Assembly: GCF_900636545.1 (NCBI RefSeq)
Contig: NZ_LR134290.1
Span: 1,488,001 to 1,552,000, forward strand
DNA length: 64,000 bases
Direction: 5' to 3'
Source of the DNA: Pseudomonas mendocina
GTDB lineage: Bacteria > Pseudomonadota > Gammaproteobacteria > Pseudomonadales > Pseudomonadaceae
The position numbers and the translations under genes are program-made. The notes under the pieces were generated by a model, which did not search any database, had not been told where the DNA came from, and saw only the letters and a program-made list of their open reading frames with translations. This document shows positions 571-44,084 of the stretch, in pieces (within the stretch, counting starts at the first letter, position 1; each line of letters opens with the position of its first letter).

Positions 571-3081
571 TCAGTCGAGGAAGGTGGACATGTCCTTGCA
601 CACCGCCGCGAAGGCCTCGACGAAGTGCCGCGCCTCCTGCTCGCTGAGTACCAGCGGCGGCTGGATACGCATGACCCGGTTGTTGTTGGCGGTGACGAAG
701 GTGAGGATGCCGTGGTCCTGCGACAGCTTGGTCACGAAGCGCAGCACGAACATTTCCTCGAAGTTCTTTTCCAGTTCGTCGATGGCTTCGCGGATCAGCC
801 GCTTGGCCTTGCCCGACATCATCCGGTAGGTGCCTGCCGCGTTACCCGGCATGCGGCTGGCGAATTCTCGGACGAAGGCTTCCACCCCGCCGCCGAAGCT
901 GTTCTGGAACTCGATGGCGATCATCAGCCCGCGTCCACGGATCTCGCGGATGAAGGGGTAGCCGGCCACGGCCTCGGCGAGCGCATCCTTGAGCATGCCG
1001 CCGACCCGCGCCGCGTTGCCCGCCAGGTCTTCGGCTGCGATGACGTCCAGCGTCGCCAGCGCCGAGGCCGCCGCCAGGTTGCCGCCGCCGAAGGTGGAGG
1101 TGTGCAGGGCGAAGCTGTCGATGTTGCCGTAGGCGCGGTCCCAGATATCGGCCCGCGACAGCGTCGCGCCGATGGGAACGGCGCCGCCGGAGAGGGATTT
1201 GGAGAGCACCAGGATGTCCGGCTCGACACCTTCCCATTCACAGGCGAACAGCTTGCCGGTACGGCCCAGGCCCGTCTGGATTTCATCGAGGATGAGGATG
1301 CAGTCGTGGTCGGAGCAGAGTTCGCGAACCCTTTTCAGATAGCCCTCCGGTGGCATCACCACGCCGCCTTCGCCCTGGATGGGCTCGAGGATGAAGGCGC
1401 CGACGTCGCCTTCCAGCAGGGCGCGTTCCAGGGCCTCGGTGTCGCCGAAGGGGATCGAGGCGCAGCGCGGCAGCAGCGGCTGGAACGGCTGCCGGTGCTT
1501 GTCGCGCCCGGTGATCGACAGCGCGCCGAGGGTCTTGCCGTGGTAGCCATTGTCGCAGTACAGCACCCGTGAACGGTCCATGGCGGCAAGGGCCAGTTTC
1601 AGCGCCGCTTCCACCGCTTCGGTTCCCGAGTTGCTGAAGAACACCCGCTGCAGTTTGCCCGGCGCCAGTTGGCTCAGGCGCTGGGCCAGCAGGCTGGTCT
1701 GCAAGGGCACCGAGACGTACTGGACGAAGGTCGGCTGCTCCTGCTGCAGGTAGCGTTGCAGCGCGCTGTTGATCTGCGGGTGGTTGTGGCCGGTGTTGAG
1801 GCAGCCGTAGCCCGCCACGAAGTCGAGGTAACGGCCGCCGTCCAGGTCGGTCAGCCAGCAGCCGCGACCATGGCTGAACACCCGCTCGATATGGTTGAAG
1901 GCATAGAACTCGCGCAGGATGGGGTTGATGTGCTCGCCGAAGCTGCGCAGCGCCTCGCTGCGCAGTTGCGGCTTGTCCTCCAGTGCCAGGGGCTGGCTGC
2001 GTGGGTGGTGGAAGCGGCGCAATCCGCCGAAGTCGGCCTGGGTCAGGCGCTCGCCATAGGAGGCCATCGGCGAGGGGAACAGACCATGGCTTTCGGCCAG
2101 CTGGCCGATCTCCAGCACCTTGTTTTCCGGCAGCTCGCGCCCGATGGAGAAGGCTTCGGCGCGGCCTTCCAGGCCCAGCACTAGGGTTTCGGCCAGGCAG
2201 CCATTGAGGAATTTCTTCGGCGCCAGGCCCATGCTCTCGGCGCCGAAGCGCAGCGAGGTGCCGGCCGAGACCAGGCCGCCATCGATGATTAGGATGTCGC
2301 GGCGATCACGCCGATAGAGCATCACGTCGCGTGGCAGCGCCGCATCCACTACCACCGAGCCCGGGGCCAGGCGGTAGGGGTCGATGATACCGCCGCTGGA
2401 GGTGGCCGCCACGTAGAAGCGCACCTCGTCGTAGCAAGGCTCGATGTCGTTGCTCAGGCGCACCCGCTCGTGCAGTGCCTGCGGCAGGTACTCCAGCCCC
2501 TGGCGTGCCTGTTCTGCGCCGCCGCGGTGGATCAGGCGCAAGCGGCAGCCGTCGCGGCCGAGCAGCCGGGCGATGGCCAGGGCGATGGAGCCGGGGTAGC
2601 CGACCACCGCCACCTCGCTGTCTTCGGGCTTCACCTCCAGGCGCTGCATGGCCTCCAGTACGTTGCGGTAGGCGGCGTAGGCAGTCAGCGAGTTGCCCGT
2701 GGTCACCGGTACCCCGGTGCGCTCCAGAGTCTGCAGGCCGCGGTTGCCGACGATGGCGGTGAAGCCACCGAGACCGACCAGTTGTGCCCCCAGGGCCTTC
2801 AGGCTGTCCACGCCCTCGATCACGCGCTGAGCGATCGCCCGTGGTTGGGCGAGCATTTCCTCGGCGGTCAGTGGCATGTAATGGACGATGCCTTCGCAGA
2901 TGGCGCCGCGTGCGCTGACGATGCGGCCGAAGTCGGCGAAGGGCACCAGGTTGCGCCAGCGCCAGATGTCCGGGCTGTAACCGCGATCCTGCTCGGCGAG
3001 GTTGCGATCGAACAGGTCGAGGAGTTTCACCTGGCGTTTCAGGGCGACCGAGGTGGGGTGGGCGATGAATCCGAATTTCAT
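571..3081 (-). CDS. PigE-like acyl reductase-aminotransferase fusion
   Basis: This protein of about 836 residues has two parts. Residues 1-350 resemble acyl-ACP/acyl-CoA reductases of the cyanobacterial AAR type: a GNSLTAY segment, a Rossmann glycine stretch (VVGYPGSIA) and a CLAETLVLGLEGR motif whose cysteine (about C295) matches the proposed thioester cysteine. From about 385 on it is a class III PLP aminotransferase, with LILDEIQTGLGR holding the PLP aspartate and LSKS holding the PLP lysine (about K628). This fused order is that of PigE, which with PigD makes the pyrrole precursor of prodigiosin. The ATG at 3081 follows an AAGGA ribosome site; a start at 3105 overlapping the upstream stop is the alternative. 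Last gene of the leftward unit. The similarity to PigE is from architecture; the substrate is unknown. Confidence 0.72.
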   Translation of the reverse strand: MKFGFIAHPTSVALKRQVKLLDLFDRNLAEQDRGYSPDIWRWRNLVPFADFGRIVSARGAICEGIVHYMPLTAEEMLAQPRAIAQRVIEGVDSLKALGAQLVGLGGFTAIVGNRGLQTLERTGVPVTTGNSLTAYAAYRNVLEAMQRLEVKPEDSEVAVVGYPGSIALAIARLLGRDGCRLRLIHRGGAEQARQGLEYLPQALHERVRLSNDIEPCYDEVRFYVAATSSGGIIDPYRLAPGSVVVDAALPRDVMLYRRDRRDILIIDGGLVSAGTSLRFGAESMGLAPKKFLNGCLAETLVLGLEGRAEAFSIGRELPENKVLEIGQLAESHGLFPSPMASYGERLTQADFGGLRRFHHPRSQPLALEDKPQLRSEALRSFGEHINPILREFYAFNHIERVFSHGRGCWLTDLDGGRYLDFVAGYGCLNTGHNHPQINSALQRYLQQEQPTFVQYVSVPLQTSLLAQRLSQLAPGKLQRVFFSNSGTEAVEAALKLALAAMDRSRVLYCDNGYHGKTLGALSITGRDKHRQPFQPLLPRCASIPFGDTEALERALLEGDVGAFILEPIQGEGGVVMPPEGYLKRVRELCSDHDCILILDEIQTGLGRTGKLFACEWEGVEPDILVLSKSLSGGAVPIGATLSRADIWDRAYGNIDSFALHTSTFGGGNLAAASALATLDVIAAEDLAGNAARVGGMLKDALAEAVAGYPFIREIRGRGLMIAIEFQNSFGGGVEAFVREFASRMPGNAAGTYRMMSGKAKRLIREAIDELEKNFEEMFVLRFVTKLSQDHGILTFVTANNNRVMRIQPPLVLSEQEARHFVEAFAAVCKDMSTFLD

Positions 3082-3101
3082 TTCGAGAGTCCTTGTGGCC
3101 G

Positions 3102-5522
3102 TCATGCGCGGCGGTTCCAGGCGGTTTCGGAGATCAGGCTGAGGCCATCACCGTCCGAGTTGTGGGCGAGCGTCACGTCAATGATGTTGAGGCTGTTGGG
3201 GGTGGTCAGGGCATCACGCAGCCACTGCCCATCGAACTGGCTCAGGCGATGGCGGTTCACCACAAGCGGGCCGCCTGGCTCCATCAGTGTCGGCTGCGAC
3301 GCGCGCCCGGCTACCGTCACCTGGCGGGCACCGTTGCAGGCATAGCGTTTGTCCAGGTAGGTCTGAATCATCGAGAGCAGGCCGTTGCTCAGGTAGAACA
3401 GGGTGACGTTGCGGCCAGGCATGTGCGGGTTCTGAGCCAGGCTGGCGGCCAGGCGTGTTTCGATGTCCGGCACCAGAGCCCGGGCACCGTCGCCGACGAA
3501 GGCCAGCACGTTGTCCGGGCTGGTGGCGGCGATGTAGGGCAGCGCCATCAGGCCATCGCCCATCAGGGCCCGGCCATACCAACCGGAGAAGCCCGGGCCG
3601 GTGCGTGGCACGTTGCGCAGCGCGGAAATGCCGCAACGGCCCACATCATAGACGCCGGTATAACGGTAGCCGTGGCGCTCGATCAGTTCGTGCAGCAGGT
3701 CACCGAGCTGCAGGAAGAAGTAGTTGGCGGTCATCGGCTGGGTGACGATGCGGTCCACCGGCACCGTTTCCGGGAGCGCCCGTATGCGCTGCAGCTTGGC
3801 GCGGCGCAGGGCCAGCACCTCGGGTGCCACGGCCAGGTTGGCCTGGACGTGGTCGAGGAACTTGTCCAGCGGCATCTCCAGCGCCAGGTCGGTGAAGGGC
3901 GACAGGTGGCGCCGCTGGTGGTTCAGTTGCACCACGCGGGTCTGGCGCTTCAGCTTGCCTTCGGAGAAGGGCGTGGCGGCCTGGTCCACCTTGCTCTTGA
4001 TGAAGAACAGGCACTGCTGCTCCGGGCCGAGCAGTTCGTGATCCTGGTGCAGGAACTGGTAGATGCGCCGGCTGAAGCCATACAGCGACAGCGGGCCGAG
4101 GTAGTTCGGCACCGCCTGGCCCTGGTGGTAGGGGCCTACGCTGCCGGGATGGGTGATGGTGTCGGCCAGCGCGATGCCGGCGGCATCGGCGATCGCGTAG
4201 ACGCGTTCACGTTGGCTGTCGGAGAGTCTGCCGCACTGCCAGAGCATATGCAGGGGCGCCTGGTTGATCAGCCGCATGGCCTCGTCCAGGGCGCCGCGTT
4301 GCATCTCGTTCGGCGCCGCCAGGCTGGGCGAGGCGGGGGCTGGCAGGTCCAGATTCAGAGGTTGCCGTGGACGCGACTCCAGCGCCGCCTGGGAGGCCAG
4401 CACGAACACCGGCTCGCTGCGCTCGGCGAGCATGGCGAAGGCCTGCGTGAGCTTGGCCGCTATTTCGTCCACCCGCTGGATGAACACGTGACGCAGGCCA
4501 CGCGCGGCGATCACTTGCCGGCCATCGTGGTCGGCATCCAGGGTGCTCTGGAAGGCGAACCAGGTCGTGTCCGGGCTTTCGGCGCAGATGATCAGACCGG
4601 GCGCGCCGGCTCGCTTGAGGTTGGCCAGGGTGCCGCGAAATTCGTCGAGCATGCCCGAGGTGACCGCGATCACGTAGGCGCGTTCGTAGAGCTGCCAGCC
4701 GGCCAGCGCGGAGACGGCGAGGCTGTGTTCGTTGCAACCGTGCAGGCAGCGTATGCCCGTGCCGGCAGTGGTCTGCTGCATCGACTGGATCAGGCAGGCG
4801 ACCATGGAGCCGGTGTAAGAATGGAAGTCCCAGTCGTCCCGCCAGCGAGCGCGCATGAAGCGCGTCACTTCGCTGGCGATGCTCACCGGCGGCTGCTCGG
4901 GGTTCATCGTGCGCGCCAGCAGGCGATTGAAGCGGGTGTGCTCGAGATGATCCACGGCGATCCGCAGCAGGTCGGCGCGGCTGGCCGCCCGGTCCTGCAA
5001 GGGCACGCGCAGGTGACGATTGCCGCCGGCCTGCTCCATCCAGCCCGGCAATGCCTGCGCCGAGCAATAGAGCACCGCGGAATGCGGCGACAGGCGCTGT
5101 CCCCCGTCGTCATGCTGGCAGGCGCTGAACAGCGTCTCGAACGGATCTTCCTCGGCCACTGGCTGCTGGCTCATGTCGACGATGAACAGCTCGGCCCGTG
5201 TGGCTGCGCCAGACCTGGCCAGCTCCGCGCGTGCGGCCTCCAGCGTGGGGAAGTGCAGCAGTTGCACGTCCAGGGGCTCGCGGCCGGCCGAGGTGTTCTC
5301 CCGCAGGTAGCTCTCGGCCTGCACCATAAGCGCTTCCAGCACCTCTTCGCTGCGCGGTCGCCGATCCAGCGAGCGGCACATCCGCTCGACATCGGCCGTG
5401 GCGTCCCAGGGCTCGGCCGCAACGTAGGTCAGGCCTGTTCTCAACTGCTCGATGACGAAGGCGACATCTTCTATCAGCGCAGGTACCTGGCTGACCAGGC
5501 ACACTCCCATTGTTCCCGACAT
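3102..5522 (-). CDS. PigD-like thiamine diphosphate-dependent enzyme
   Basis: This is an 806-residue protein with a long unrecognised N-terminal part of about 190 residues followed by ThDP-enzyme domains. A segment with HGCNEHS is a likely pyrimidine-domain glutamate region. Near the C-terminus VGDGARAL, followed some 34 residues later by SNG, looks like the GDG...N motif that holds Mg-ThDP. Its size, extra N-terminal domain and position just before a PigE-like gene match PigD/HapD, which add a pyruvate-derived acetyl unit to an unsaturated aldehyde (Stetter-type chemistry). The ATG at 5522 follows GAGGAA; an upstream ATG at 5591 would overlap the transporter gene. Its stop is only about 20 bases upstream of the PigE-like start. 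The family call is an inference from architecture; another 2-oxoacid decarboxylase or synthase is possible. Confidence 0.62.
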   Translation of the reverse strand: MSGTMGVCLVSQVPALIEDVAFVIEQLRTGLTYVAAEPWDATADVERMCRSLDRRPRSEEVLEALMVQAESYLRENTSAGREPLDVQLLHFPTLEAARAELARSGAATRAELFIVDMSQQPVAEEDPFETLFSACQHDDGGQRLSPHSAVLYCSAQALPGWMEQAGGNRHLRVPLQDRAASRADLLRIAVDHLEHTRFNRLLARTMNPEQPPVSIASEVTRFMRARWRDDWDFHSYTGSMVACLIQSMQQTTAGTGIRCLHGCNEHSLAVSALAGWQLYERAYVIAVTSGMLDEFRGTLANLKRAGAPGLIICAESPDTTWFAFQSTLDADHDGRQVIAARGLRHVFIQRVDEIAAKLTQAFAMLAERSEPVFVLASQAALESRPRQPLNLDLPAPASPSLAAPNEMQRGALDEAMRLINQAPLHMLWQCGRLSDSQRERVYAIADAAGIALADTITHPGSVGPYHQGQAVPNYLGPLSLYGFSRRIYQFLHQDHELLGPEQQCLFFIKSKVDQAATPFSEGKLKRQTRVVQLNHQRRHLSPFTDLALEMPLDKFLDHVQANLAVAPEVLALRRAKLQRIRALPETVPVDRIVTQPMTANYFFLQLGDLLHELIERHGYRYTGVYDVGRCGISALRNVPRTGPGFSGWYGRALMGDGLMALPYIAATSPDNVLAFVGDGARALVPDIETRLAASLAQNPHMPGRNVTLFYLSNGLLSMIQTYLDKRYACNGARQVTVAGRASQPTLMEPGGPLVVNRHRLSQFDGQWLRDALTTPNSLNIIDVTLAHNSDGDGLSLISETAWNRRA

Positions 5523-5575
5523 GCTGGCTTCCTCTGCACATCCTGTTCGTGATGGCGGCATCTGCCGCCGTGTTG

Positions 5576-6844
5576 CTAACGGCTTGCGCACGGAGGCTTC
5601 AGGTGCGCCTCACCTTGGTTGCATGGCGCTCGCTTGTCTTCGGTGATGCGTGCCAGGGCAGGGCTGGCGGCCAGGGCCAGGAGGTAGACGCCGAGCATGG
5701 CCGAGGTCAGGCCGAGCAGCATTCCGGTGTAGCCCAGGCGATCCAGAAGCACGCCGGCGGCCACTGGCACCGCCAGGCGCGAGACCACGAACAGGCTGGC
5801 CTGCAGGCCGTAATCGACGGCCTGGCGCTGGTGGCGGGTGAAGTACATCATCAGGCCGAAGACCATGGCGGAGATCGCGCCCATGGCCGCTGCCACCAGC
5901 GTTGCGCCGATGATCAGCCCGAGCGGGCCTGCCTGGCTCCAGAGCACGGCGGTCAGGCTGGCCAGGGCGAAGAGGGCGAAGCCGGTGAACAGCGGCATGG
6001 CCCGGGCCACCCCGAGCCGGCGCAGCAGGCGCCCGCCCAGCACGCTGGCCAGGGCACCGACCGCGCCGCCGCCGACCCCGGCCACCCAGGCCACCTGGGT
6101 GGCCGGCATACCCTGATCGAGCAGCAACGGCTTGAGGTACAGCCAACTGGCGCCAATGAACGGAAAGCAGGACAGCAGCAGGCAGGTCCACAGCGCTGCC
6201 CCGGGTTGCTCGAAGTAGCCGCGCCAGTTCGGCTCGTACCTGCTCTGCGCAGCGTCTGCCGGGCCTTGCGGCGCACCTTCGCCCAGCAACGGCAGCAACA
6301 GCGCGCCCAGCAGCAGGGCGCCGGCCATCAGCACGAAGGATGCCTGCCAGCCCCAGTGTTCGTGCACCAGCAGCATCAGGCCGCCACCGACGATGGCGGC
6401 CAGAAACAGCGCCGCCGAGCGGATCGCCCCGGCGCGCACGCGTTGGTTTTCCGGCAGAAGCTTGATCGCCAGGGCGTTGACCGGAATGTCGGCCCAGGTC
6501 GCCAGCACCCCGGCCAGCAGCGTCAGGGCGAAGAACAGGCCATGCCTGTCGAGCAGTGCCTCGCGCCCGACCAGCAGCAGAACTGCCGCCAGGCCCAGGC
6601 TCAGCAGCAGTGCCCAGCTTCTGTAATGCGCGCCGGCGAAGCTCCAGCGCTCCACTGGCAGCGCCAGCAGGAACTTGAATACCGCCGGCAGCCCGGCCAA
6701 CTGGAACAGGCCGATATCGGTGCCCGACCAACCGTGCTGGCGCATCACCAGCGGCATGCCGAGCAACAGGTAGATACTCGGCACCGCCAGAACGAAGTTC
6801 AGCCAGCCGAACAGCGCCTGGCGCCCGAGCAGGTGCATGTTCAT
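5576..6844 (-). CDS. RhtX/FptX-like MFS inner-membrane transporter
   Basis: This is a 422-residue, very hydrophobic protein with about twelve membrane segments. It fits the RhtX/FptX family, whose members (about 410-420 residues) carry ferri-siderophores such as rhizobactin and ferripyochelin from periplasm to cytoplasm without an ABC system. Conserved-looking pieces include the N-terminal GWSGTDIGLFQLAGLPAVFKFL and an internal RAGAIRSAALF. The ATG at 6844 overlaps the methyltransferase stop as ATGA, so translation is coupled. The TonB receptor two genes upstream and the PchR-like activator support an iron-complex uptake role. Export of the cluster product by a generic MFS pump is the alternative. 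Confidence 0.65.
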   Translation of the reverse strand: MNMHLLGRQALFGWLNFVLAVPSIYLLLGMPLVMRQHGWSGTDIGLFQLAGLPAVFKFLLALPVERWSFAGAHYRSWALLLSLGLAAVLLLVGREALLDRHGLFFALTLLAGVLATWADIPVNALAIKLLPENQRVRAGAIRSAALFLAAIVGGGLMLLVHEHWGWQASFVLMAGALLLGALLLPLLGEGAPQGPADAAQSRYEPNWRGYFEQPGAALWTCLLLSCFPFIGASWLYLKPLLLDQGMPATQVAWVAGVGGGAVGALASVLGGRLLRRLGVARAMPLFTGFALFALASLTAVLWSQAGPLGLIIGATLVAAAMGAISAMVFGLMMYFTRHQRQAVDYGLQASLFVVSRLAVPVAAGVLLDRLGYTGMLLGLTSAMLGVYLLALAASPALARITEDKRAPCNQGEAHLKPPCASR

Positions 6845-7887
6845 TGCAGGCTCCTGCGGCCGATCACGGCGGTGACCGGGGTTACCGGGAAAGGCACCTC
6901 GCGCTGCGTCTGCAAGGCACTGAAACCGGCCCGCTGCATGGCATGGCGCAGGCCTCCGGTGTGGGTCAACTGGCGCCCGAGCATGCGCATGGACAGGTAG
7001 TAGGAGAGCATCTGCCGCGCCGCATCCTGGCTGTCGGGAATTTCCGCCTGGGCGCAGACCAGCACGCCGCCTGGGCGCAACGCGGCGTGGATCTTGCCCA
7101 GAGCCTGGTCGATATCGGGCACGAAATGCAGCACGGAGGAGCACCAGATCAGGTCATAGCCCTCGCCGATCGGGTCGCGGATCAGGTCGCCGCTGCGGCC
7201 CCGCAGACGCCCGCCGAGGCCGGCCGCGTGGATGTTCTCTTCGGCCACGCTGATGGTCTGTGGCAGGTCGAATACCTCGCCGCGCAAGTTGGGGTTGGCC
7301 TTGGCCAGGGCAATGGCCACCAGCCCAGGGCCGCCGCCCAGGTCGAGCAGGCGTTGGGCACGGGGGAATTCGGGCAGTTGCGAGAACACCGCCAGCGCCG
7401 CCTCGGCGGTTGCCGCACGCTGCTCCTGGGCGATCTGCAGGCGCGCGGCCGCCTGCCAGTTGGCCGCGTTTTCGGCAAGCCGGGGGGCGGTGCTCGCCTC
7501 GCCGGTGCGTAGCTGTTCGTCCAGATTCTTGCCGAAGTGGCGCAGCGCCTGCAGGCGCAGGCTCCAGGCGTCGCCGCAATGCTGCTTCGAGTCGTGATCC
7601 AGATAGCGGCTCGCCAGCCAGGAGGCCTGGTAGCGCCAGCCTTGCGCAGGCGTTTCGTGACGTTCCAGCAGGCGCATGCTCCAGAGCATTTCCAGCAGAT
7701 GCTCGGTGTTGCTCGGGTGCAGGCGCAGGCGCTCGGCCACGATGCCGGCCGGCATCGGCTCGGCAAGCAGGCGGAACAGCTTCAGCTCCAGAGCCACGCG
7801 CAGGGCGTCGGCCTGGACCGAGGCCAGGGCCAGGTCCCAGTAGGGTTGCAGCGGGTGGCCGCCGGTGGCGTTGGTGTGTGGGGTCAT
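6841..7887 (-). CDS. SAM-dependent O-methyltransferase family protein
   Basis: This 348-residue protein has an N-terminal winged-helix dimerisation region (about 15-100, including LHPSNTEHLLEMLWSMRLL). A class I SAM-binding fold follows, with motif I LDLGGGPGLVAIALA at 181-195 and WCSSVLHFVPD further on. This is the layout of plant- and polyketide-type small-molecule O-methyltransferases (acetylserotonin-MT-like). The start overlaps the stop of the TonB receptor gene (ATGA) and its own stop overlaps the next start, so it is embedded in the operon. It probably decorates the product of the PigD/PigE-like enzymes. The methyl acceptor cannot be read from sequence. Confidence 0.75.
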   Translation of the reverse strand: MTPHTNATGGHPLQPYWDLALASVQADALRVALELKLFRLLAEPMPAGIVAERLRLHPSNTEHLLEMLWSMRLLERHETPAQGWRYQASWLASRYLDHDSKQHCGDAWSLRLQALRHFGKNLDEQLRTGEASTAPRLAENAANWQAAARLQIAQEQRAATAEAALAVFSQLPEFPRAQRLLDLGGGPGLVAIALAKANPNLRGEVFDLPQTISVAEENIHAAGLGGRLRGRSGDLIRDPIGEGYDLIWCSSVLHFVPDIDQALGKIHAALRPGGVLVCAQAEIPDSQDAARQMLSYYLSMRMLGRQLTHTGGLRHAMQRAGFSALQTQREVPFPVTPVTAVIGRRSLQ

Positions 7888-9869
7888 AGTCGATAGCTCA
7901 GGCGTAGGCCGATCTCGCGTGGCTCGCTGTACACGCGTGCCATGCCGTTGAGGTAACCGACCGCGTCGTAGCGCTTGTCGGTGGCGTTTTCCACGTAGGC
8001 GCTCAGGCCCAGGTGCTCGAAGTCATAGCCGGCGCTCAGGTCGAGCAGGGCGTAGCCGGCGCGGCCGTAACGGTTGGCCGAATCGAGGTAGGTGCGACCC
8101 ACGCCGCTTATCCCAGCCTGGGCGAACCAGCCGGCATCGGCGTCGTAGCGCAGGCCCAGGTAGCTGGTCAGGTCGGGCGCGAAGGGGGCGTGGTTGCCCT
8201 GGTAGTCGGCGCTGCCGTCCTGAAAGCGCTCGAAGCGCGTGCGGTTGATGCCAAGCGAAGCCTGCAGCTGCCAGTGTTCGCCGAGCAGGTAGTCGGCCTC
8301 CAATTCCAGGCCGCTGCTGCGAGCCTCGGCGGCATTGGTGATGTAGACCATCCCGGGCTGCACGATCTGCTGTACCTGCATGTCGCTGATCTGCATCCAG
8401 TAGAGGGCGGCCGAATAGCGCAGGCGACGTTGCGCAGCCCAGCCCTTGATGCCGAGTTCATAGGCGTCCACCTGCTCCGGGTCGTACCCCGGGTAGCCGG
8501 CCGAGGCGGAGAAGGCATTGAAGCCGCCAGCACGGAAGCCTTGCGAATAGCTGGCATAGGCCTGGGTGTCGTCGCTCCAGGCGTATTGCAGGGCCAGCTT
8601 GGGGGTGAAGCGCTGCCACTGGTCGCTGCGGTTGCGGCTGTCACGGGGCGACAGGCTGACCTCGTCGCGCTCCAGCCGCGCGCCAAGGGTCAGGGACCAG
8701 TGCGAGGTCAGCGCCTGCGTCCACTGGCCGAACAGGGCGGCGGTGTTGCCGCCCAGATCCACCTGGGTGCGGGTCATGGCCATGGGCAGCTTCTGGCGAT
8801 AATCCAGCGAGTGGTCGTCGCGATCGGCATAGAGGCCGACGAGCCACTGACTCTCTGCCCCTTCGCCTTCCAGGCGCAGCTCCTGGGACAGGGTGCTCAG
8901 GTGGTAGTCGCGTTCGAGGTGCAGGGCATCGATCGGCAGGAAGTCGGTGTCCTGGCGCACGCGATCGTAGAAGTCGTTGCGCGCCGTGATCGAGCGCAGG
9001 CGCAGGCCGGAATCCAGCTCATGCTCGATATCCAGCGACAGGCTGCGGGCGCTGGAATGGTTCCAGCTGCGGGTACCGGAGCGCACCTCGCGGTGCGACG
9101 AGCCGGCCGCGCCCCATAGCGAGCCGCCATCGCGGTAGTCCTGGCGGCTGTAACGCAAGGTGGCGCTGGTCGCTGATGCGGGTGTCCAGCGCAGCACGGC
9201 GCGGCCGTTGTGGCGCTCGCGATCATCCTCGTCGCGGCCACGGTAGGCGTTGTCGATGAAGCCGTCCTGTTCGAGCCATTCGCCGGCGATGCCGCCGTAC
9301 AGCGTATCGGCCACCAGCGCTTGGCTCAGGTCGAAGCGCAGCACGCGCTTGTCGCGGTTGCCCAGGGTGGCATCGACCCGCGCGTAGGGCGCGTCGTCGA
9401 TGGGGCGGGTGTGCAGGTGCATCACGCCGGCCTCTGCGTTGCGCCCGTACAGGGTCGATTGCGGGCCACGGAGGATTTCCACTCGCTCCAGCGCCAGCAG
9501 GTTGTGGTCGAAGCCCTGGCCCATCAGGATGGGCACGCCATCGACCAGCATCAGCACGGAGGAGGAGAACGCCGTCGCGCTGGAGCTGATGCCGCGCATC
9601 ACCGGTACGTTGGTACCGGACTGGCCGAACGGCTGGAAGACGAAGTTCGGCGTGCGCCGGGCCAGCGCCTGCAGGTCGTCGGCTCCGGCGTCGCGCAAGG
9701 CTTCACCCTGCACGACCGACACGCTGGCCGGTATGTCCTGCAGATCCTGTTCGATCTTGTTGGCGGTAACGGTCATGTCCGGCAACTGCTGCGCTGCCGC
9801 CAGCGTCAGGGTTGGAGCCAGCAAGCCTCCCAGCATGCCGACTGGCAAACGGATACCCATCTTTCCCAT
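7884..9869 (-). CDS. TonB-dependent outer-membrane receptor
   Basis: This is a 661-residue receptor with an N-terminal signal sequence ending near AAAQQ and a TonB-box-like PDMTVTA. The plug domain reads DIPASVSVVQGEALRDAG ... VDGVPI ... LERVEILRGPQSTLYG, and a long beta-barrel with alternating polar and aromatic strands ends in ...LRLSYRL. Such receptors import ferric siderophores or other scarce complexes using TonB energy. It is the first gene of the leftward unit, with a divergent AraC gene and a Fur-box-like site in its promoter. Both fit an iron-controlled receptor for the cluster's own or a related compound. The last residue is leucine instead of the usual aromatic. Confidence 0.9.
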   Translation of the reverse strand: MGKMGIRLPVGMLGGLLAPTLTLAAAQQLPDMTVTANKIEQDLQDIPASVSVVQGEALRDAGADDLQALARRTPNFVFQPFGQSGTNVPVMRGISSSATAFSSSVLMLVDGVPILMGQGFDHNLLALERVEILRGPQSTLYGRNAEAGVMHLHTRPIDDAPYARVDATLGNRDKRVLRFDLSQALVADTLYGGIAGEWLEQDGFIDNAYRGRDEDDRERHNGRAVLRWTPASATSATLRYSRQDYRDGGSLWGAAGSSHREVRSGTRSWNHSSARSLSLDIEHELDSGLRLRSITARNDFYDRVRQDTDFLPIDALHLERDYHLSTLSQELRLEGEGAESQWLVGLYADRDDHSLDYRQKLPMAMTRTQVDLGGNTAALFGQWTQALTSHWSLTLGARLERDEVSLSPRDSRNRSDQWQRFTPKLALQYAWSDDTQAYASYSQGFRAGGFNAFSASAGYPGYDPEQVDAYELGIKGWAAQRRLRYSAALYWMQISDMQVQQIVQPGMVYITNAAEARSSGLELEADYLLGEHWQLQASLGINRTRFERFQDGSADYQGNHAPFAPDLTSYLGLRYDADAGWFAQAGISGVGRTYLDSANRYGRAGYALLDLSAGYDFEHLGLSAYVENATDKRYDAVGYLNGMARVYSEPREIGLRLSYRL

Positions 9870-9974
9870 CTATCCCCCCGTAGCCGGTAAATGATGAACG
9901 GGGCCGCAGATGCCCCCTAGCCAGATACCGGCGCGACATGGCGTGCTATTGATTTGATACCAATGTTATAGGTA

Positions 9975-9993
9975 GATAAGAATGCGTATCATG
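9975..9993. promoter_or_regulatory. Fur-box-like site between TonB receptor and AraC genes
   Basis: The 19 bases GATAAGAATGCGTATCATG match the AATAAGAATCATTATCATT form of the Fur consensus at 14 of 19 positions and lie in the AT-rich divergent promoter region (9870-10046). Fur binding here would shut off both directions when iron is plentiful. Visible match; function inferred. Confidence 0.55.
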
Positions 9994-10046
9994 TAGATTG
10001 ATATGAATTCTGGATTTTCCCGTATCTAAAACAGGAGGAAGGACCC

Positions 10047-11051
10047 ATGGCCGCTGTGCAACGGATCTCCCAGCCGCATCGATTGGCGATGAGCCAGGCC
10101 CGCCAGGTGCGCCGGGAAACTTCCGGCTGGGAGCGTCAGCAACTGCCGGAGGAGCTGGGCGACTGCTACTCGGAGCGTTTCGTTTTGGATCACGATCTGC
10201 TGCTGGTGCGCTCGCGCTATCACCCCACCCGCGATCTGATCGAGGAGACGGTCGATCCCCATGACCGCCACATGCTGGTGATCACCCTGGGGTTGCAGGG
10301 GCAGTCCGGCTACAAGGCACGCAATGGCGACACCCTGTGTTTCCGCGCCGGCTTCACCACCGTCACCGCGTTCCATGGCAGCCAGGGGGAACGCTGCTAC
10401 GAAGCCGGTACGACGGTTTCCCAGCTACGGCTGCTGGTGGGGGAGAAGACCCTGGTCAGGTATCTGGGCGCGGAGCGTGCCGGGGCATTGCTGGGCTCGG
10501 GGCATATCCGCCAACTGGCCTTTCGCAAGACCAGCGGGGCCAGCAGCGCCCATGCCGGAGCGTTGCAGCGGTATCTCAACGACCCGCAGCGCATCGCGGC
10601 GCTGGACATGCATATCCACTCGCTCAGCCTGCTTTCCGAGCAGCTCAATCTGCTCTGCCCGGCAACGCCCACGGCGCTGCAGTTCAGCACCCAGGACATC
10701 GAGAAGCTGGAGCGCGCCCGCGATCTGATGATCGAGCAGATCGACCAGCCACTGACCATCGCCTACCTGTGCGCGGCGGTGGGGCTGAACGAATTCAAGC
10801 TCAAGGAAGGTTTCCACTACCGCTTCAACACCACGCCCCACCGGATGCTCCACGAGATGCGCATGCGTAAGGCCCATGTGCTGCTTGAGAGCGGTCATCA
10901 GGTGGCGCAGGTGGCATACCGCGTTGGCTATCGCTACCCGAACAACTTCAGTGCCGCGTTTTCCGCCTTCTTCGGCCAGGCGCCGAAGTCGGTGTTCGGT
11001 ACGCATCGGCGCTCGGGCAAGGTACCGGGGCGCGAGGTTCGCCCGCATTGA
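10047..11051 (+). CDS. AraC-family regulator, PchR-like
   Basis: This is a 334-residue protein. The C-terminal 90 residues form the double helix-turn-helix of AraC regulators (LTIAYLCAAVGLNEFKLKEG ... VAQVAYRVGYRYPNNFSAAF). The N-terminal region has the layout of the PchR type, which senses a ferric siderophore and activates its receptor and biosynthesis genes. The start follows a strong GGAGGAAGGA ribosome site. It diverges from the TonB receptor gene over 177 bases holding a Fur-box-like site. The inferred role is activation of the 571-9869 unit when the cognate iron complex is present. Confidence 0.85.
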   Translation: MAAVQRISQPHRLAMSQARQVRRETSGWERQQLPEELGDCYSERFVLDHDLLLVRSRYHPTRDLIEETVDPHDRHMLVITLGLQGQSGYKARNGDTLCFRAGFTTVTAFHGSQGERCYEAGTTVSQLRLLVGEKTLVRYLGAERAGALLGSGHIRQLAFRKTSGASSAHAGALQRYLNDPQRIAALDMHIHSLSLLSEQLNLLCPATPTALQFSTQDIEKLERARDLMIEQIDQPLTIAYLCAAVGLNEFKLKEGFHYRFNTTPHRMLHEMRMRKAHVLLESGHQVAQVAYRVGYRYPNNFSAAFSAFFGQAPKSVFGTHRRSGKVPGREVRPH

Positions 11052-11109: not shown

Positions 11110-11952
11110 TCAGCGCTTCAGACCGCCCAGGGTCAGCGGCATCTGGCGGTTCACATCCTTGTACAGCAGGTAGCGGAAGCGGCTCGGGCCGCCGGCGTAG
11201 CAGGCCTGCGGGCAGAAGGCGCGCAGCCACATGAAGTCGCCGGCTTCGACTTCGACCCAGTCCTGATTCAGGCGATACACCGCCTTGCCTTCCAGCACGT
11301 ACAGGCCGTGTTCCATGACATGGGTTTCGGCGAAGGGGATCACGCCGCCCGGCTCGAAGTTGACGATGTTGACGTGCATGTCATGGCGCATGTCGCTGAT
11401 CTCGACGAAGCGCGTGGTGCTCCAGCGGCCTTCGGTACCGGGCATGACGATCGGCTCGATGTCCTGCTCGTGGGTGACGAAGGCTTCCGGATACGGCACG
11501 CCTTCGACTGGTTGATAGGCCTTGCGCAGCCAGTGAAAACGCACGGCTTCGCTGCCGTTGTTGCGTAGCGACCAATCGCTTTCTGGCGGGATGAAGGCGT
11601 AGCTGCCCGGGCGCAGGGCGTGCTGGGTGCCGTTGAGGCTCAGGTCGCAGGTGCCTTCGACGACGAAGATCACGCCTTCGGCGGTCGGGTCCAGCTCGGG
11701 CTTGTCGCTGCCGCCGTTCGGGCCGACTTCGACGATGTACTGCGAGAAGGTTTCGGCGAAGCCGGTCAGCGGGCGGGCGATGACCCACATGCGCATGTTG
11801 TCCCAGAACGGCAGGTGGCTGGTGACGATGTCACGCATTACACCTTTGGGGATCACGGCGTAAGCTTCGGTGAACATGGCGCGGTCGGTCAGCAGTTGTT
11901 CCTGACCTGGATGACCGCCATGCGGTGCGTAGTAGTAGGGCGATTTGCTCAT
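11110..11952 (-). CDS. allE: (S)-ureidoglycine aminohydrolase
   Basis: This is a 280-residue bicupin protein starting at MSKSPYYYAPHGG. It has the typical allE (YlbA) features: two cupin barrels, an N-terminal PHGG segment, and metal-ligand regions such as PFAETHVMEHGLYVLEGKAVYRL. It converts (S)-ureidoglycine to (S)-ureidoglycolate and ammonia in allantoin breakdown, in the cytoplasm. The other ureide genes are not next to it here. The ATG at 11952 was chosen because upstream codons in the same frame do not look like the family. A LysR gene diverges from it 144 bases away and is its likely regulator. Confidence 0.9.
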   Translation of the reverse strand: MSKSPYYYAPHGGHPGQEQLLTDRAMFTEAYAVIPKGVMRDIVTSHLPFWDNMRMWVIARPLTGFAETFSQYIVEVGPNGGSDKPELDPTAEGVIFVVEGTCDLSLNGTQHALRPGSYAFIPPESDWSLRNNGSEAVRFHWLRKAYQPVEGVPYPEAFVTHEQDIEPIVMPGTEGRWSTTRFVEISDMRHDMHVNIVNFEPGGVIPFAETHVMEHGLYVLEGKAVYRLNQDWVEVEAGDFMWLRAFCPQACYAGGPSRFRYLLYKDVNRQMPLTLGGLKR

Positions 11953-41997: not shown

Positions 41998-42008
41998 GCT
42001 TGGCTGTC

Positions 42009-42034
42009 TGGAGCGGGTGATGGGAATCGAACCC
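42009..42034. other. Left attachment site (attL)
   Basis: This is an exact 26-base copy of the 3' end of tRNA-Gly, including the CCA end read as TGG on the plus strand. Beyond 42034 the sequence diverges from the tRNA. Confidence 0.88.
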
Positions 42035-42126
42035 TTTCCGGCCCTTCGCTGTGATCCGCAAAGCCCGGCTTTTCTAGCATTGCTGCCCTGCCAGAACAGC
42101 ATTTTTCCGCTATCTCTCGCAGTGTT

Positions 42127-42145
42127 TTCGACACTTTTTCGACAC
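42127..42145. repeat. Arm-type integrase repeat, left
   Basis: TTCGACACTTTTTCGACAC contains two TCGACAC units and recurs with one change at 48491-48509, near the other end and in the same orientation. Likely integrase or excisionase arm sites. Confidence 0.55.
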
Positions 42146-42214
42146 GCTAGCTAGACAGCTATGAGGCTGAGGGGTAGCGTTTGGCTATTACAAGGAGGCC
42201 TGCCGGAGTCAGCC

Positions 42215-42376
42215 ATGGATGACATTCCCCTAGATGCAAATGAGCTTGTTGCGCTTGTCTGTAGTGTTTCGAAGATCGGAGACTTCTTCATGACTACTGC
42301 GGAGCTAGCACCTGCTTCTTGCGCACTTAACTCAAGTCAAGCAGTCCGCTTGTACGAATATATTCGACAGGCTTGA
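42215..42376 (+). CDS. Small element-borne protein
   Basis: This is a 53-residue protein starting after GGAG (MDDIPLDANELVALVCSV...). It carries an acidic start and ends LYEYIRQA. Not recognised. It precedes the MazG-like gene by 147 AT-rich bases and could be an independent small gene. Confidence 0.45.
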   Translation: MDDIPLDANELVALVCSVSKIGDFFMTTAELAPASCALNSSQAVRLYEYIRQA

Positions 42377-42523
42377 AATAGAGTGGCGTGATGAGTTTAT
42401 TAATGCATTCTCTAGCGTTAAAAATTTACTGCTAGGTCCTTTTTGGTAAGCGTTAGGGTTTAAGTAAGCTTGACGCTTTTTATAAGTATATATAAGTGAG
42501 TTGAAAAATATTAAGGAGCTACA

Positions 42524-43534
42524 ATGAAGAGTCTTGAAGTCAAGCCGTCATCGATCAAAGAGTATCAGGATTATATCTCAAATCTTTATGGGGAGGTGAA
42601 TGATCGGCATTCAATGGAATATGTGTTTTCTTATTTGTTCAGGAATGCCGCCTATCTCTCTAGAGTAATAGGGGAGAAAGGAGAGTCTAAAGATAATTTT
42701 ATTAAAACTTATTCGTGGCTTTTTGCGTTGTCCTCCAAGTTGAAAATTGATTTGGAAGATGCCTTTCTAAAGAAGTATCCGGATGTGTGTCCGTACTGTC
42801 TGGTAAAGCCTTGTATTTGTATAAAAACAGGTAAGAAGCCAGTGGATTATGTGCCTGAATGGAAGGCCTCTGAGGAGATACAGTCAAAATATAGGATTGC
42901 TAAGTTGAGCAGCCCAAAGCTTATGCTTGATAAAGCAGTCGAAAGAATAAATGATTTGTATCCTGCGAATAAGCATATTTGGAATGCAGCCGGCCCAACG
43001 TTTCAATTTTATCGCGTTTTGGAGGAGCTAGGCGAAGTCCATGAGGCATATACCGGCTTCGCTAAGGGTGTCCGAAAGTCTGAAAATATTGGAGAGGAGT
43101 TGGCCGACGTTTTTGCTTGGTTGTTGTCTACTTGGGGTATTGTCTATCCAAAGCTTAGCCTCAATGATGAATTTATTGGTTATTATTATGATGGTTGTCC
43201 GGTTTGTAGTAATTCAACTTGTAAATGTCCGGATCACAGTGATCGAGGCGAGCGGTTAGTCGAGATAGAGGAGCTTGAAAAATTCCGTGCGAAGATTGAA
43301 GAGCTGATTTTGCTGGTTCCAGCATATAAAGATAAGCTTGATCTTGTGGTGGGTTCTTTGGACTCCGCGAAAGAGTCTAGATCGACTACTAGTGCTGTTA
43401 GAACTATTAATCAAGCAAAAATGGTTTTGGATGATATTAACGGTGCTGTTGGTAGTGTAGATGAAACAGGAAGAAAAATATCCTCAATCGTAACTATGCT
43501 AACTTCAATGGCGGAGAAATTTGGCTGGATGTAA
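42524..43534 (+). CDS. MazG-like pyrophosphohydrolase with two zinc knuckles
   Basis: This 336-residue gene is much richer in A+T than the rest of the window. Residues about 140-225 hold a MazG-type motif, EELGEVHEAY followed by NIGEELADVFAWLL (the EExxE...ExxD metal site), which hydrolyses NTPs to NMP and pyrophosphate. A similar helical region at 10-85 lacks the acidic motif, so the protein looks like a degenerate plus an intact copy. Each is followed by a cysteine cluster, CPYCLVKPCIC near 93 and CPVCSNSTCKC near 227. A coiled-coil-like tail (240-336) ends it. Base composition and position mark it as acquired cargo, perhaps a phage-defence nuclease of nucleotide pools. That role is inferred. 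Confidence 0.65.
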   Translation: MKSLEVKPSSIKEYQDYISNLYGEVNDRHSMEYVFSYLFRNAAYLSRVIGEKGESKDNFIKTYSWLFALSSKLKIDLEDAFLKKYPDVCPYCLVKPCICIKTGKKPVDYVPEWKASEEIQSKYRIAKLSSPKLMLDKAVERINDLYPANKHIWNAAGPTFQFYRVLEELGEVHEAYTGFAKGVRKSENIGEELADVFAWLLSTWGIVYPKLSLNDEFIGYYYDGCPVCSNSTCKCPDHSDRGERLVEIEELEKFRAKIEELILLVPAYKDKLDLVVGSLDSAKESRSTTSAVRTINQAKMVLDDINGAVGSVDETGRKISSIVTMLTSMAEKFGWM

Positions 43535-43550
43535 AAGGTTTGATAGTCGG

Positions 43551-43602
43551 CTCTGTAACTGCGAAAGCTCTGGCTTCATTTGCAACTTTCTTAGTTACAG
43601 AG
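43551..43602. terminator. Extended hairpin between convergent genes
   Basis: CTCTGTAACT and AGTTACAGAG form a perfect 10-base inverted repeat around 32 bases with weak inner pairing. It lies between the end of the MazG-like gene and the end of the first repressor gene, as for a bidirectional terminator, but has no T run. Confidence 0.4.
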
Positions 43603-43648
43603 TTGGACGTTCTGGCGATTTGTCTAATGACACTTGGCTCCATGTGTT

Positions 43649-43745
43649 CGGGCATACCAGCGCTTAGCTGCTTCCTGGGTGATCGCTATCCCGCGTTGGG
43701 TTGGCTCAAGTTTCGGTTGGCTTCGTCGTAGTCTGGGCTGGTCTG
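43649..43745. repeat. 97-bp direct repeat, copy 1
   Basis: Repeated at 43988-44084 with a single mismatch (339 bases apart). It covers the 3' end of a repressor gene plus about 37 bases beyond its stop. Confidence 0.92.
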
Positions 43746-43955
43746 GCCAATCTCGGGCGCTATTTGCCCACTCGCGATCCAGAAGGCGTATTGAGGGAAC
43801 ATCTGCACAATGGCCTCAATGTCCTGCTCGTTGGCTCGTCGCTTTCCATTTCTCAGGTGATACCAGCTGCTGCGATCAATGCCTGTCAGCTTCTCAAGCT
43901 TAGGGGCTGAGAGCTTCTTTCTGTCCCATACGTCTATCAATCGTTCTCTGATCAT
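43686..43955 (-). CDS. HTH regulator 1 (duplicate repressor)
   Basis: This is an 89-residue protein starting at MIRERLIDVWDRKK, the ATG that matches the length of its sister gene. LSAPKLEKLTGIDRSSWYHLRNGKR looks like a Cro/C1-type helix-turn-helix. The C-terminal stretch (IVQMFPQYAFWIASGQIAPE...SPDYDEANRNLSQPNAG) is nearly identical to that of the 44025-44291 gene. An in-frame ATG at 43994 lies inside the repeat and is less likely. Probably a phage-type repressor or a relative with altered specificity. Confidence 0.7.
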   Translation of the reverse strand: MIRERLIDVWDRKKLSAPKLEKLTGIDRSSWYHLRNGKRRANEQDIEAIVQMFPQYAFWIASGQIAPEIGQTSPDYDEANRNLSQPNAG

Positions 43956-43987
43956 TCCTTGGTTACTTGCTCTGATTCCTTTCCGTA

Positions 43988-44084
43988 CGGGCATACCAGC
44001 GCCTAGCTGCTTCCTGGGTGATCGCTATCCCGCGTTGGGTTGGCTCAAGTTTCGGTTGGCTTCGTCGTAGTCTGGGCTGGTCTG
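43988..44084. repeat. 97-bp direct repeat, copy 2
   Basis: Second copy of the 43649-43745 repeat. It ends gene 44025-44291 in the same way and lies just upstream of regulator 1. The pair points to a gene-end duplication or recombination. Confidence 0.92.

What the first reader, a model, noticed from the sequence alone, without database searches (positions are those of the whole stretch)
571..11051. PigD/PigE-like enzyme pair in an iron-uptake-style operon
A reductase-aminotransferase fusion and a ThDP enzyme, arranged like PigE and PigD of prodigiosin-pyrrole synthesis, are in one coupled operon with a methyltransferase, an FptX-like transporter and a TonB receptor. A PchR-like activator and a Fur-box-like site control it. 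PigB and the other prodigiosin genes are absent. This suggests a new small molecule, perhaps a methylated pyrroline or amino-ketone used as metallophore or signal, re-imported as a metal complex.
Basis: partly seen in the sequence, partly recalled or inferred. Interest (0 to 1): 0.88.

Follow-up and report, generated by a model that had tools for sequence, protein, structure and literature searches.

The report
PDTC metallophore cluster with pyrroline-making enzymes
The two prodigiosin-like enzymes sit in one half of a known type of metal-scavenging gene cluster (PDTC) and probably make a second product, a fatty pyrroline reported in 1986 whose genes seem never to have been named.

Summary
In detail: a PigE-type fusion, a PigD-type ThDP enzyme, an MFS transporter, a methyltransferase, a TonB receptor and a divergent AraC regulator lie at 571-11051. 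The window cuts the cluster in two. Just outside it lie E1-rhodanese, JAB, ThiS, CoA-transferase III, AMP-ligase, acyl-CoA dehydrogenase, an MFS transporter and an unknown gene. Content, and the order in many relatives, match the published PDTC cluster pdtCKPELMFGHIJON of Pseudomonas F113. The metallophore is thus most likely PDTC, a known one.

The PigD/PigE pair is separable from the sulfur cassette: of 33 genomes found with a non-prodigiosin pair, 29 have it beside the cassette and 4 alone; 5 cassettes lack it. F113 and P. putida DSM 3601, both PDTC strains, make 3,4-dihydro-5-methyl-4-alkyl-2H-pyrroles, the chemotype PigD and PigE give without PigB. I infer that PdtL (PigD-like) and PdtM (PigE-like) make these lipids. 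No answered literature search listed a paper saying so; the older pdt papers are not held.

The parts
571..3105 (-). PigE-type fusion (acyl-thioester reductase plus class III aminotransferase); pdtM by position; conserved start may be 3081
   Evidence: NCBIfam NF053554 1430 bits over cut-off 850; 4ppm; reductase Cys and PLP Lys invariant in 13 of 13 aligned
3102..5519 (-). PigD-type ThDP enzyme; pdtL by position
   Evidence: NF053552 684 bits, below cut-off 950; presumed ThDP residues invariant in 15 of 15 aligned; fold search
5576..6745 (-). MFS transporter, probably inner-membrane uptake; pdtE by position
   Evidence: PF07690; TIGR02718 RhtX/FptX only 61 of 356 bits
6841..7887 (-). O-methyltransferase-family protein; pdtP by position; S-methylation of PDTC inferred
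   Evidence: PF00891 and PF08100
7884..9869 (-). TonB-dependent receptor; pdtK by position
   Evidence: PF00593, PF07715; TIGR01783 just over cut-off
9870..10046 (.). Divergent promoter region; weak, partly conserved Fur-like stretch around 9975-10000
   Evidence: 11 of 19, inconclusive
10047..11051 (+). AraC-family regulator; pdtC by position
   Evidence: PF12833, PF00165

Best explanation
The genes are one half of a pdt (PDTC thiocarboxylate metallophore) cluster that carries a second, separable biosynthetic module. Metallophore side: AMP ligase J, CoA-transferase I and the E1-rhodanese/JAB/ThiS system F, G, H turn a carboxylate (dipicolinate in known producers) into a thiocarboxylate; the second MFS protein N probably exports it; receptor K and MFS protein E probably take the metal complex back; C regulates; methyltransferase P probably S-methylates PDTC. 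[quoted passage not shown] PdtM (PigE-type) reduces the thioester and transaminates the aldehyde; the aminoketone closes to a 5-methyl-4-alkyl-3,4-dihydro-2H-pyrrole. With no PigB this pyrroline is the end product. Shown here: gene content, families, order in relatives, co-occurrence, separability. Inferred: every reaction and product in this organism, and the letters L, M and P, which rest on gene order.
For: Sulfur cassette beside the window with the core described for PDTC and quinolobactin clusters (PMC1779556 passages; PMC6006322 passages). Order C-K-P-E-L-M-F-G-H-I-J-O-N seen in relatives equals the published F113 order. Pair beside cassette in 29 of 33 genomes found; in a draw of 398 Pseudomonadaceae all 10 PigD genomes are among the 11 with a strong PdtI hit, 4.8-9.4 kb apart. 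Pair alone in G740, G816, G952 and as a remnant in G810; cassette without pair in G017 and 4 Hahella genomes. PigD/PigE chemistry (PMC8341465 whole text; PMC7065143 passages). Dihydropyrroles 28, 30 and 32 made only by F113 among four strains, the strain with the pdt genes; also from P. putida DSM 3601, a PDTC strain. Both groups of compounds rise in F113 with wheat extract. Computed masses fit. PigB not found.
Against: No experiment ties these genes to any product. F113 and P. stutzeri KC sequences were not read; 13 letters stand for 14 locus tags. Three compounds (25, 26, 29) of the same molecular network were made by all four strains. In biofilm the dihydropyrroles rose 14-45 fold, while PDTC derivatives did not change significantly, so the two are not always co-regulated. 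F113 pyrrolines were assigned by MS comparison only, and PDTC itself was not detected. The PigD-like protein is below the PigD cut-off. In Hahella the prodigiosin enzymes could serve both pathways, and PdtI of G017 is split, so some pair-less cassettes may be poor tests.
Confidence: 0.7

Rival explanations
1. One product: the PigD/PigE amine or pyrroline is a building block of, or is joined to, a thiocarboxylate metallophore that is not plain PDTC.
For: Tight linkage of pair and cassette, 29 of 33 genomes; the two halves share a regulator region in canonical loci.
Against: Each module occurs without the other; known PDTC needs no pyrroline; known long-chain dihydropyrroles carry no sulfur.
Confidence: 0.15
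2. The cluster is pdt, but the PigD/PigE pair makes a different small amine or aminoketone (other acyl chain or other keto acid), not the known dihydropyrroles.
For: PigD-like is below the PigD cut-off; substrate cannot be read from sequence.
Against: Both strains reported to make the dihydropyrroles are PDTC strains.
Confidence: 0.1
3. One reading: a new methylated pyrroline or amino-ketone metallophore, re-imported as a metal complex.
For: TonB receptor, MFS protein and methyltransferase in the same operon.
Against: Receptor, transporter and regulator also accompany the sulfur cassette where the pair is missing (G017); the published function of this gene set is PDTC.
Confidence: 0.03
4. Remnant or variant of a prodigiosin cluster.
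For: PigE passes the prodigiosin PigE equivalog cut-off.
Against: PigB: no match in G000; in the other 17 genomes outside the two Hahella controls at most 37 bits, against 1255-1313 bits in the controls. Hahella prodigiosin sequences form a separate group in the trees.
Confidence: 0.02

Closest known systems
[quoted passage not shown] stutzeri KC
   Same: Gene set, and in canonical relatives the published order CKPELMFGHIJON; sulfur core F, G, H, I, J as described
   Different: In the window genome the two halves converge instead of running in one direction; product not tested; F113 and KC sequences not read
PigD/PigE of prodigiosin biosynthesis (Serratia, Hahella)
   Same: Domain make-up and presumed catalytic residues; adjacent gene pair
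   Different: PigD-like below the PigD cut-off; separate group in trees; no PigB
Thioquinolobactin cluster
   Same: Same sulfur-transfer core; L055, which I take for such a cluster by inference, has F, G, H, I, J, AraC and TBDR relatives
   Different: L055 has 40-62% identity to our F, G, H, I, J and no PigD/PigE
3,4-dihydro-5-methyl-4-alkyl-2H-pyrroles of P. putida DSM 3601 and F113 (product, not genes)
   Same: Exactly the ring substitution that PigD plus PigE give
   Different: Alkyl C11-C15 instead of C5 of prodigiosin; no genes assigned in the passages seen

Membership tests
pdt / PDTC cluster | Thiocarboxylate core: E1-rhodanese, JAB, ThiS/MoaD, CoA-transferase III, AMP ligase | tested here: met
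   L017 8797-14370; core as in PMC1779556
pdt / PDTC cluster | AraC regulator, TonB receptor and MFS uptake protein | tested here: met
pdt / PDTC cluster | Published gene order CKPELMFGHIJON | tested here: inconclusive
   Met in canonical relatives; in the window genome the same genes in two converging halves; F113 sequence itself not read
pdt / PDTC cluster | Makes PDTC | not testable with these tools
   Needs culture and LC-MS
PigE (NCBIfam equivalog) | Score over the curated cut-off, full length | tested here: met
   1430 against 850 bits; 15 of 15 related genomes also over it, 0 of 14 control genomes
PigD (NCBIfam equivalog) | Score over the curated cut-off | tested here: not met
   684 against 950 bits; it is called PigD-type only
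Prodigiosin cluster | PigB dihydropyrrole oxidase | tested here: not met
   No match in G000
Prodigiosin cluster | PigC and the bipyrrole genes | not tested
   Not searched; none among the 14 cluster genes by Pfam/NCBIfam
Thioquinolobactin cluster | Xanthurenate/kynurenine-pathway genes in the cluster | tested here: not met
   None among the 14 cluster genes by Pfam/NCBIfam; the feature follows PMC1779556 (xanthurenic acid skeleton)
RhtX/FptX transporters | TIGR02718 over cut-off | tested here: not met
   61 against 356 bits
PchR regulators | Closest kinship to PchR | not tested
   No PchR sequence was compared

The most novel reading that the evidence does not exclude
pdt loci are two-product loci by design: the cationic, membrane-seeking alkyl pyrrolines made by PdtL/PdtM act together with the anionic metal-PDTC complexes, for example as counter-ion, membrane carrier or protectant. 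That would be a so far unknown pairing of a metallophore with a dedicated lipid. Stand-alone PdtLM pairs would then make the same lipids for a second purpose.
Probability: 0.15. Interest if true: 0.8.

Novelty: new member of a known kind. Interest (0 to 1): 0.52.

Why it matters
The cluster type is known, but two of its genes seem to have no assigned product in the papers searched, and a family of Pseudomonas lipids reported in 1986 seems to have no assigned genes. The evidence joins the two. If right, simple deletions in F113 would give the function of pdtL and pdtM, show that a metallophore locus also encodes a lipid amine, and give a genetic handle on compounds that rise strongly in biofilm and with wheat root extract. 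It also warns that the model name 'prodigiosin PigE' is met by proteins of genomes in which no PigB was found.

Tried and rejected
Pyrroline as metallophore: set aside once the sulfur cassette was found outside the window. Prodigiosin remnant: set aside by PigB absence and the trees. Thioquinolobactin: set aside by gene content. Fur box: 11 of 19 to the consensus, not among the 15 best sites; a 17-mer modelled on relatives, up to 3 mismatches, gave none in the window; left open. PDB sequence searches with the PigD-like protein, alone and as profile: no match. Structure of the PigD-like protein: pLDDT 67, used for the fold class only. Phylum-wide draw of 398 genomes: 3 PigD-like genomes, the window's own, G045 and G740. 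PdtI search of 398 genomes scored at most 6 candidates a genome, so misses are possible. L065 and L066 (further flanks of the G740 pair) were fetched but not analysed. Literature: 11 searches sent, 10 answered; none listed a paper that ties pdtL/pdtM or PigD/PigE relatives to the alkyl dihydropyrroles. The pdt papers of 2000-2007 and the 1986 paper are known to me only from reference lists or memory, so this is not proof of novelty. Seen of papers: PMC8341465 whole text; passages of PMC1779556, PMC6006322, PMC7415375, PMC7911646, PMC8955329, PMC3570484, PMC7065143, PMC10393863, PMC7374359, PMC8456098, PMC2996968; all others only as search listings.
Full report
What is there. The window holds six genes at 571-11051 as described. 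From the divergent AraC gene leftwards on the minus strand they are TonB receptor, methyltransferase, MFS transporter, PigD-type ThDP enzyme and PigE-type fusion. ATGA overlaps join receptor-methyltransferase and, if the ATG at 3105 is used, PigD-PigE. The PigE-like protein passes the curated PigE cut-off, 1430 against 850 bits, and aligns with PDB 4ppm, which I recall as Serratia PigE, over residues 9-844. The PigD-like protein is a clear relative (E 2e-205) but scores 684 bits against a cut-off of 950, with the first ~170 residues outside the match. Residues that look like the ThDP motifs (Glu264, GDG 676-678, Asn712; motif assignment from memory) are invariant in the 15 sequences aligned; L011, whose frame is broken, was left out. 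A model of modest confidence (mean pLDDT 67) has only ThDP enzymes among the 50 PDB matches shown, with low TM-scores. In PigE the reductase cysteine (Cys296 in PMC8341465) and the presumed PLP lysine are invariant in 13 of 13 aligned.

What the window hides. In the genome (G000, window = C1:1488001-1552000) the 18 kb before the window hold, on the plus strand, ThiF-rhodanese, JAB, ThiS, CoA-transferase III, AMP ligase, acyl-CoA dehydrogenase, MFS and a ~390-residue protein without a Pfam match (L017 8797-17935). The last ends about 65 bases before the window, so the two halves of the cluster converge. This is the sulfur core described for the PDTC and quinolobactin siderophores (passages of PMC1779556, and PMC6006322).

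Identity of the cluster. Two papers give the F113 PDTC cluster as pdtCKPELMFGHIJON, PSF113_2605-2618. The order AraC-TBDR-MT-MFS-PigD-PigE-F-G-H-I-J-O-N is seen in the canonical loci (L002 and L058 to the end; L001, L100, L101, L105-L107 and others as far as the fetched stretch reaches). Other loci differ: in L003, L005, L011, L014 and L015 no such TBDR lies between C and P; L007, L008, L012 and L013 show no methyltransferase; L009, L013 and L059 have other orders. By position PigD-like is PdtL, PigE-like PdtM and the methyltransferase PdtP. I did not read the F113 or P. stutzeri KC sequence, and 13 letters stand for 14 locus tags.

Co-occurrence. All 15 loci found in named genomes carry the cassette beside the pair. 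In a draw of 398 Pseudomonadaceae genomes, 10 have a PigD-like gene. A search of the draw with the N part of PdtI hit 32 genomes at E <= 0.001: 11 above 200 bits, one of 123 bits (G067, L055, thioquinolobactin-like by my inference), 20 at 32 bits or less (the 200-bit line was drawn afterwards, at a gap from 222 to 123). All 10 PigD genomes are among the 11, both genes on one contig 4.8-9.4 kb apart; hypergeometric 4e-19 with relatedness ignored. In a draw of 347 genomes of the genus of G011, 16 have PigD-like: 5 are genomes, 2 have the coordinates of G045 and G304, and I fetched the other 9; 8 have the cassette, G952 does not. The cassette is beside the pair in 29 of 33. These genomes were found through the pair, and not all by even sampling.

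Separability. In G740, G816, G810 and G952 no other cluster gene lies beside the pair, and a PdtI search of the whole genomes gave nothing in the first three and at most 88 bits, over the common CoA-transferase part, in G952; the positive control G1003 gave 723 bits. The G810 copy is a remnant. In trees rooted by midpoint the intact stand-alone pairs lie inside the pdt group: G740 and G816 next to Stutzerimonas-type loci at full support, G952 among Pseudomonas loci at 89% in a quick tree. The Hahella prodigiosin sequences form a separate group; L008 has a long branch and its place is unsure. Conversely, G017 has the cassette with receptor, transporter, regulator and a methyltransferase further on, but no PigD-like gene; its PdtI frame is split. 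Four Hahella genomes have a prodigiosin PigD and, elsewhere, an F-G-H-I-J-O-N-x cassette without a pair beside it. So neither module depends on the other by position, and the pair is kept without the cassette at least twice.

Product. In prodigiosin biosynthesis PigD adds acetyl from pyruvate to a 2-enoyl thioester; PigE reduces the thioester and transaminates the aldehyde, giving 5-methyl-4-pentyl-3,4-dihydro-2H-pyrrole, which PigB oxidises (whole text of PMC8341465; passages of PMC7065143). PigB gave no match in G000; among 17 other genomes outside two Hahella controls, five had hits of at most 37 bits; the controls gave 1255 and 1313. Metabolite papers report in F113 3,4-dihydro-5-methyl-4-alkyl-2H-pyrroles with C11:0, C13:1 and C15:1 chains; these (compounds 28, 30, 32) came only from F113 among four strains, and the PDTC row of their Table 1 names F113 only. 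The same compounds were isolated from P. putida DSM 3601, a PDTC strain by a reference title and a statement on P. putida. Wheat root extracts raised both groups in F113. C11:0, C13:1 and C15:1 plus three ring carbons are acyl C14:0, C16:1 and C18:1; computed [M+H]+ of 238.253, 264.269 and, for the acetyl form, 280.264 fit reported m/z 238, 264 and 280. Against: compounds 25, 26 and 29 of the same network were made by all four strains; in biofilm the pyrrolines rose 25.6-, 13.7- and 44.6-fold while PDTC derivatives did not change significantly; identification was by MS comparison; PDTC itself was not detected. The authors name no genes for these compounds in the passages seen.

Methyltransferase. 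F113 gave PDTC derivatives m/z 198 and 228 as true products, others being put down to methanol. By my formulas bis-S-methyl PDTC and its half-hydrolysed form compute to 228.015 and 198.022. S-methylation by PdtP is the simplest role; this is inference, and some loci show no methyltransferase.

Regulation. The AraC gene occupies the place of pdtC. The Fur-like stretch is partly conserved in eight intergenic regions but weak.

Novelty. The cluster type is known. What seems new is the assignment of PdtL/PdtM to the alkyl dihydropyrroles and the two-module view. Ten answered literature searches listed no paper that states it, but the key older pdt papers were not available to me. My most daring reading, a dedicated lipid that works with the metallophore, has no direct evidence beyond the linkage.

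Noticed in passing
L005 752-6355 (also L003, L011, L014, L015; L013 15374-21037): Beside the pdt cluster lie a ~1041-residue TonB receptor, a ~295-residue protein with a TbpB-type barrel and a Slam (surface lipoprotein assembly modifier), in 6 of 15 loci (Pfam run on L005 only). In the five Pseudomonas loci the usual receptor between regulator and methyltransferase is missing.
   Followed up: partly
L108 6650-13934: Stand-alone PigD/PigE pair of G952 next to a biopterin-dependent hydroxylase-like protein and a PLP decarboxylase on the same strand; possibly another small pathway.
   Followed up: partly
L056 7804-17258: Decaying pdt cluster in G374: broken PigD-like frame and about 1.2 kb of extra DNA inside PigE-like and between the JAB and ThiS genes.
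   Followed up: no
L078 9622-13193: PigD/PigE remnant in G810 with the end of PigD-like and the start of PigE-like missing.
   Followed up: no
window 42001-44000: AT-rich stretch (GC 0.446 against about 0.6-0.69 elsewhere) with a 336-residue ORF at 42524-43534 that looks MazG-like to me.
   Followed up: no
window 11110-11952: (S)-ureidoglycine aminohydrolase, over curated cut-offs, next to the regulator; probably the border of the cluster.
   Followed up: no
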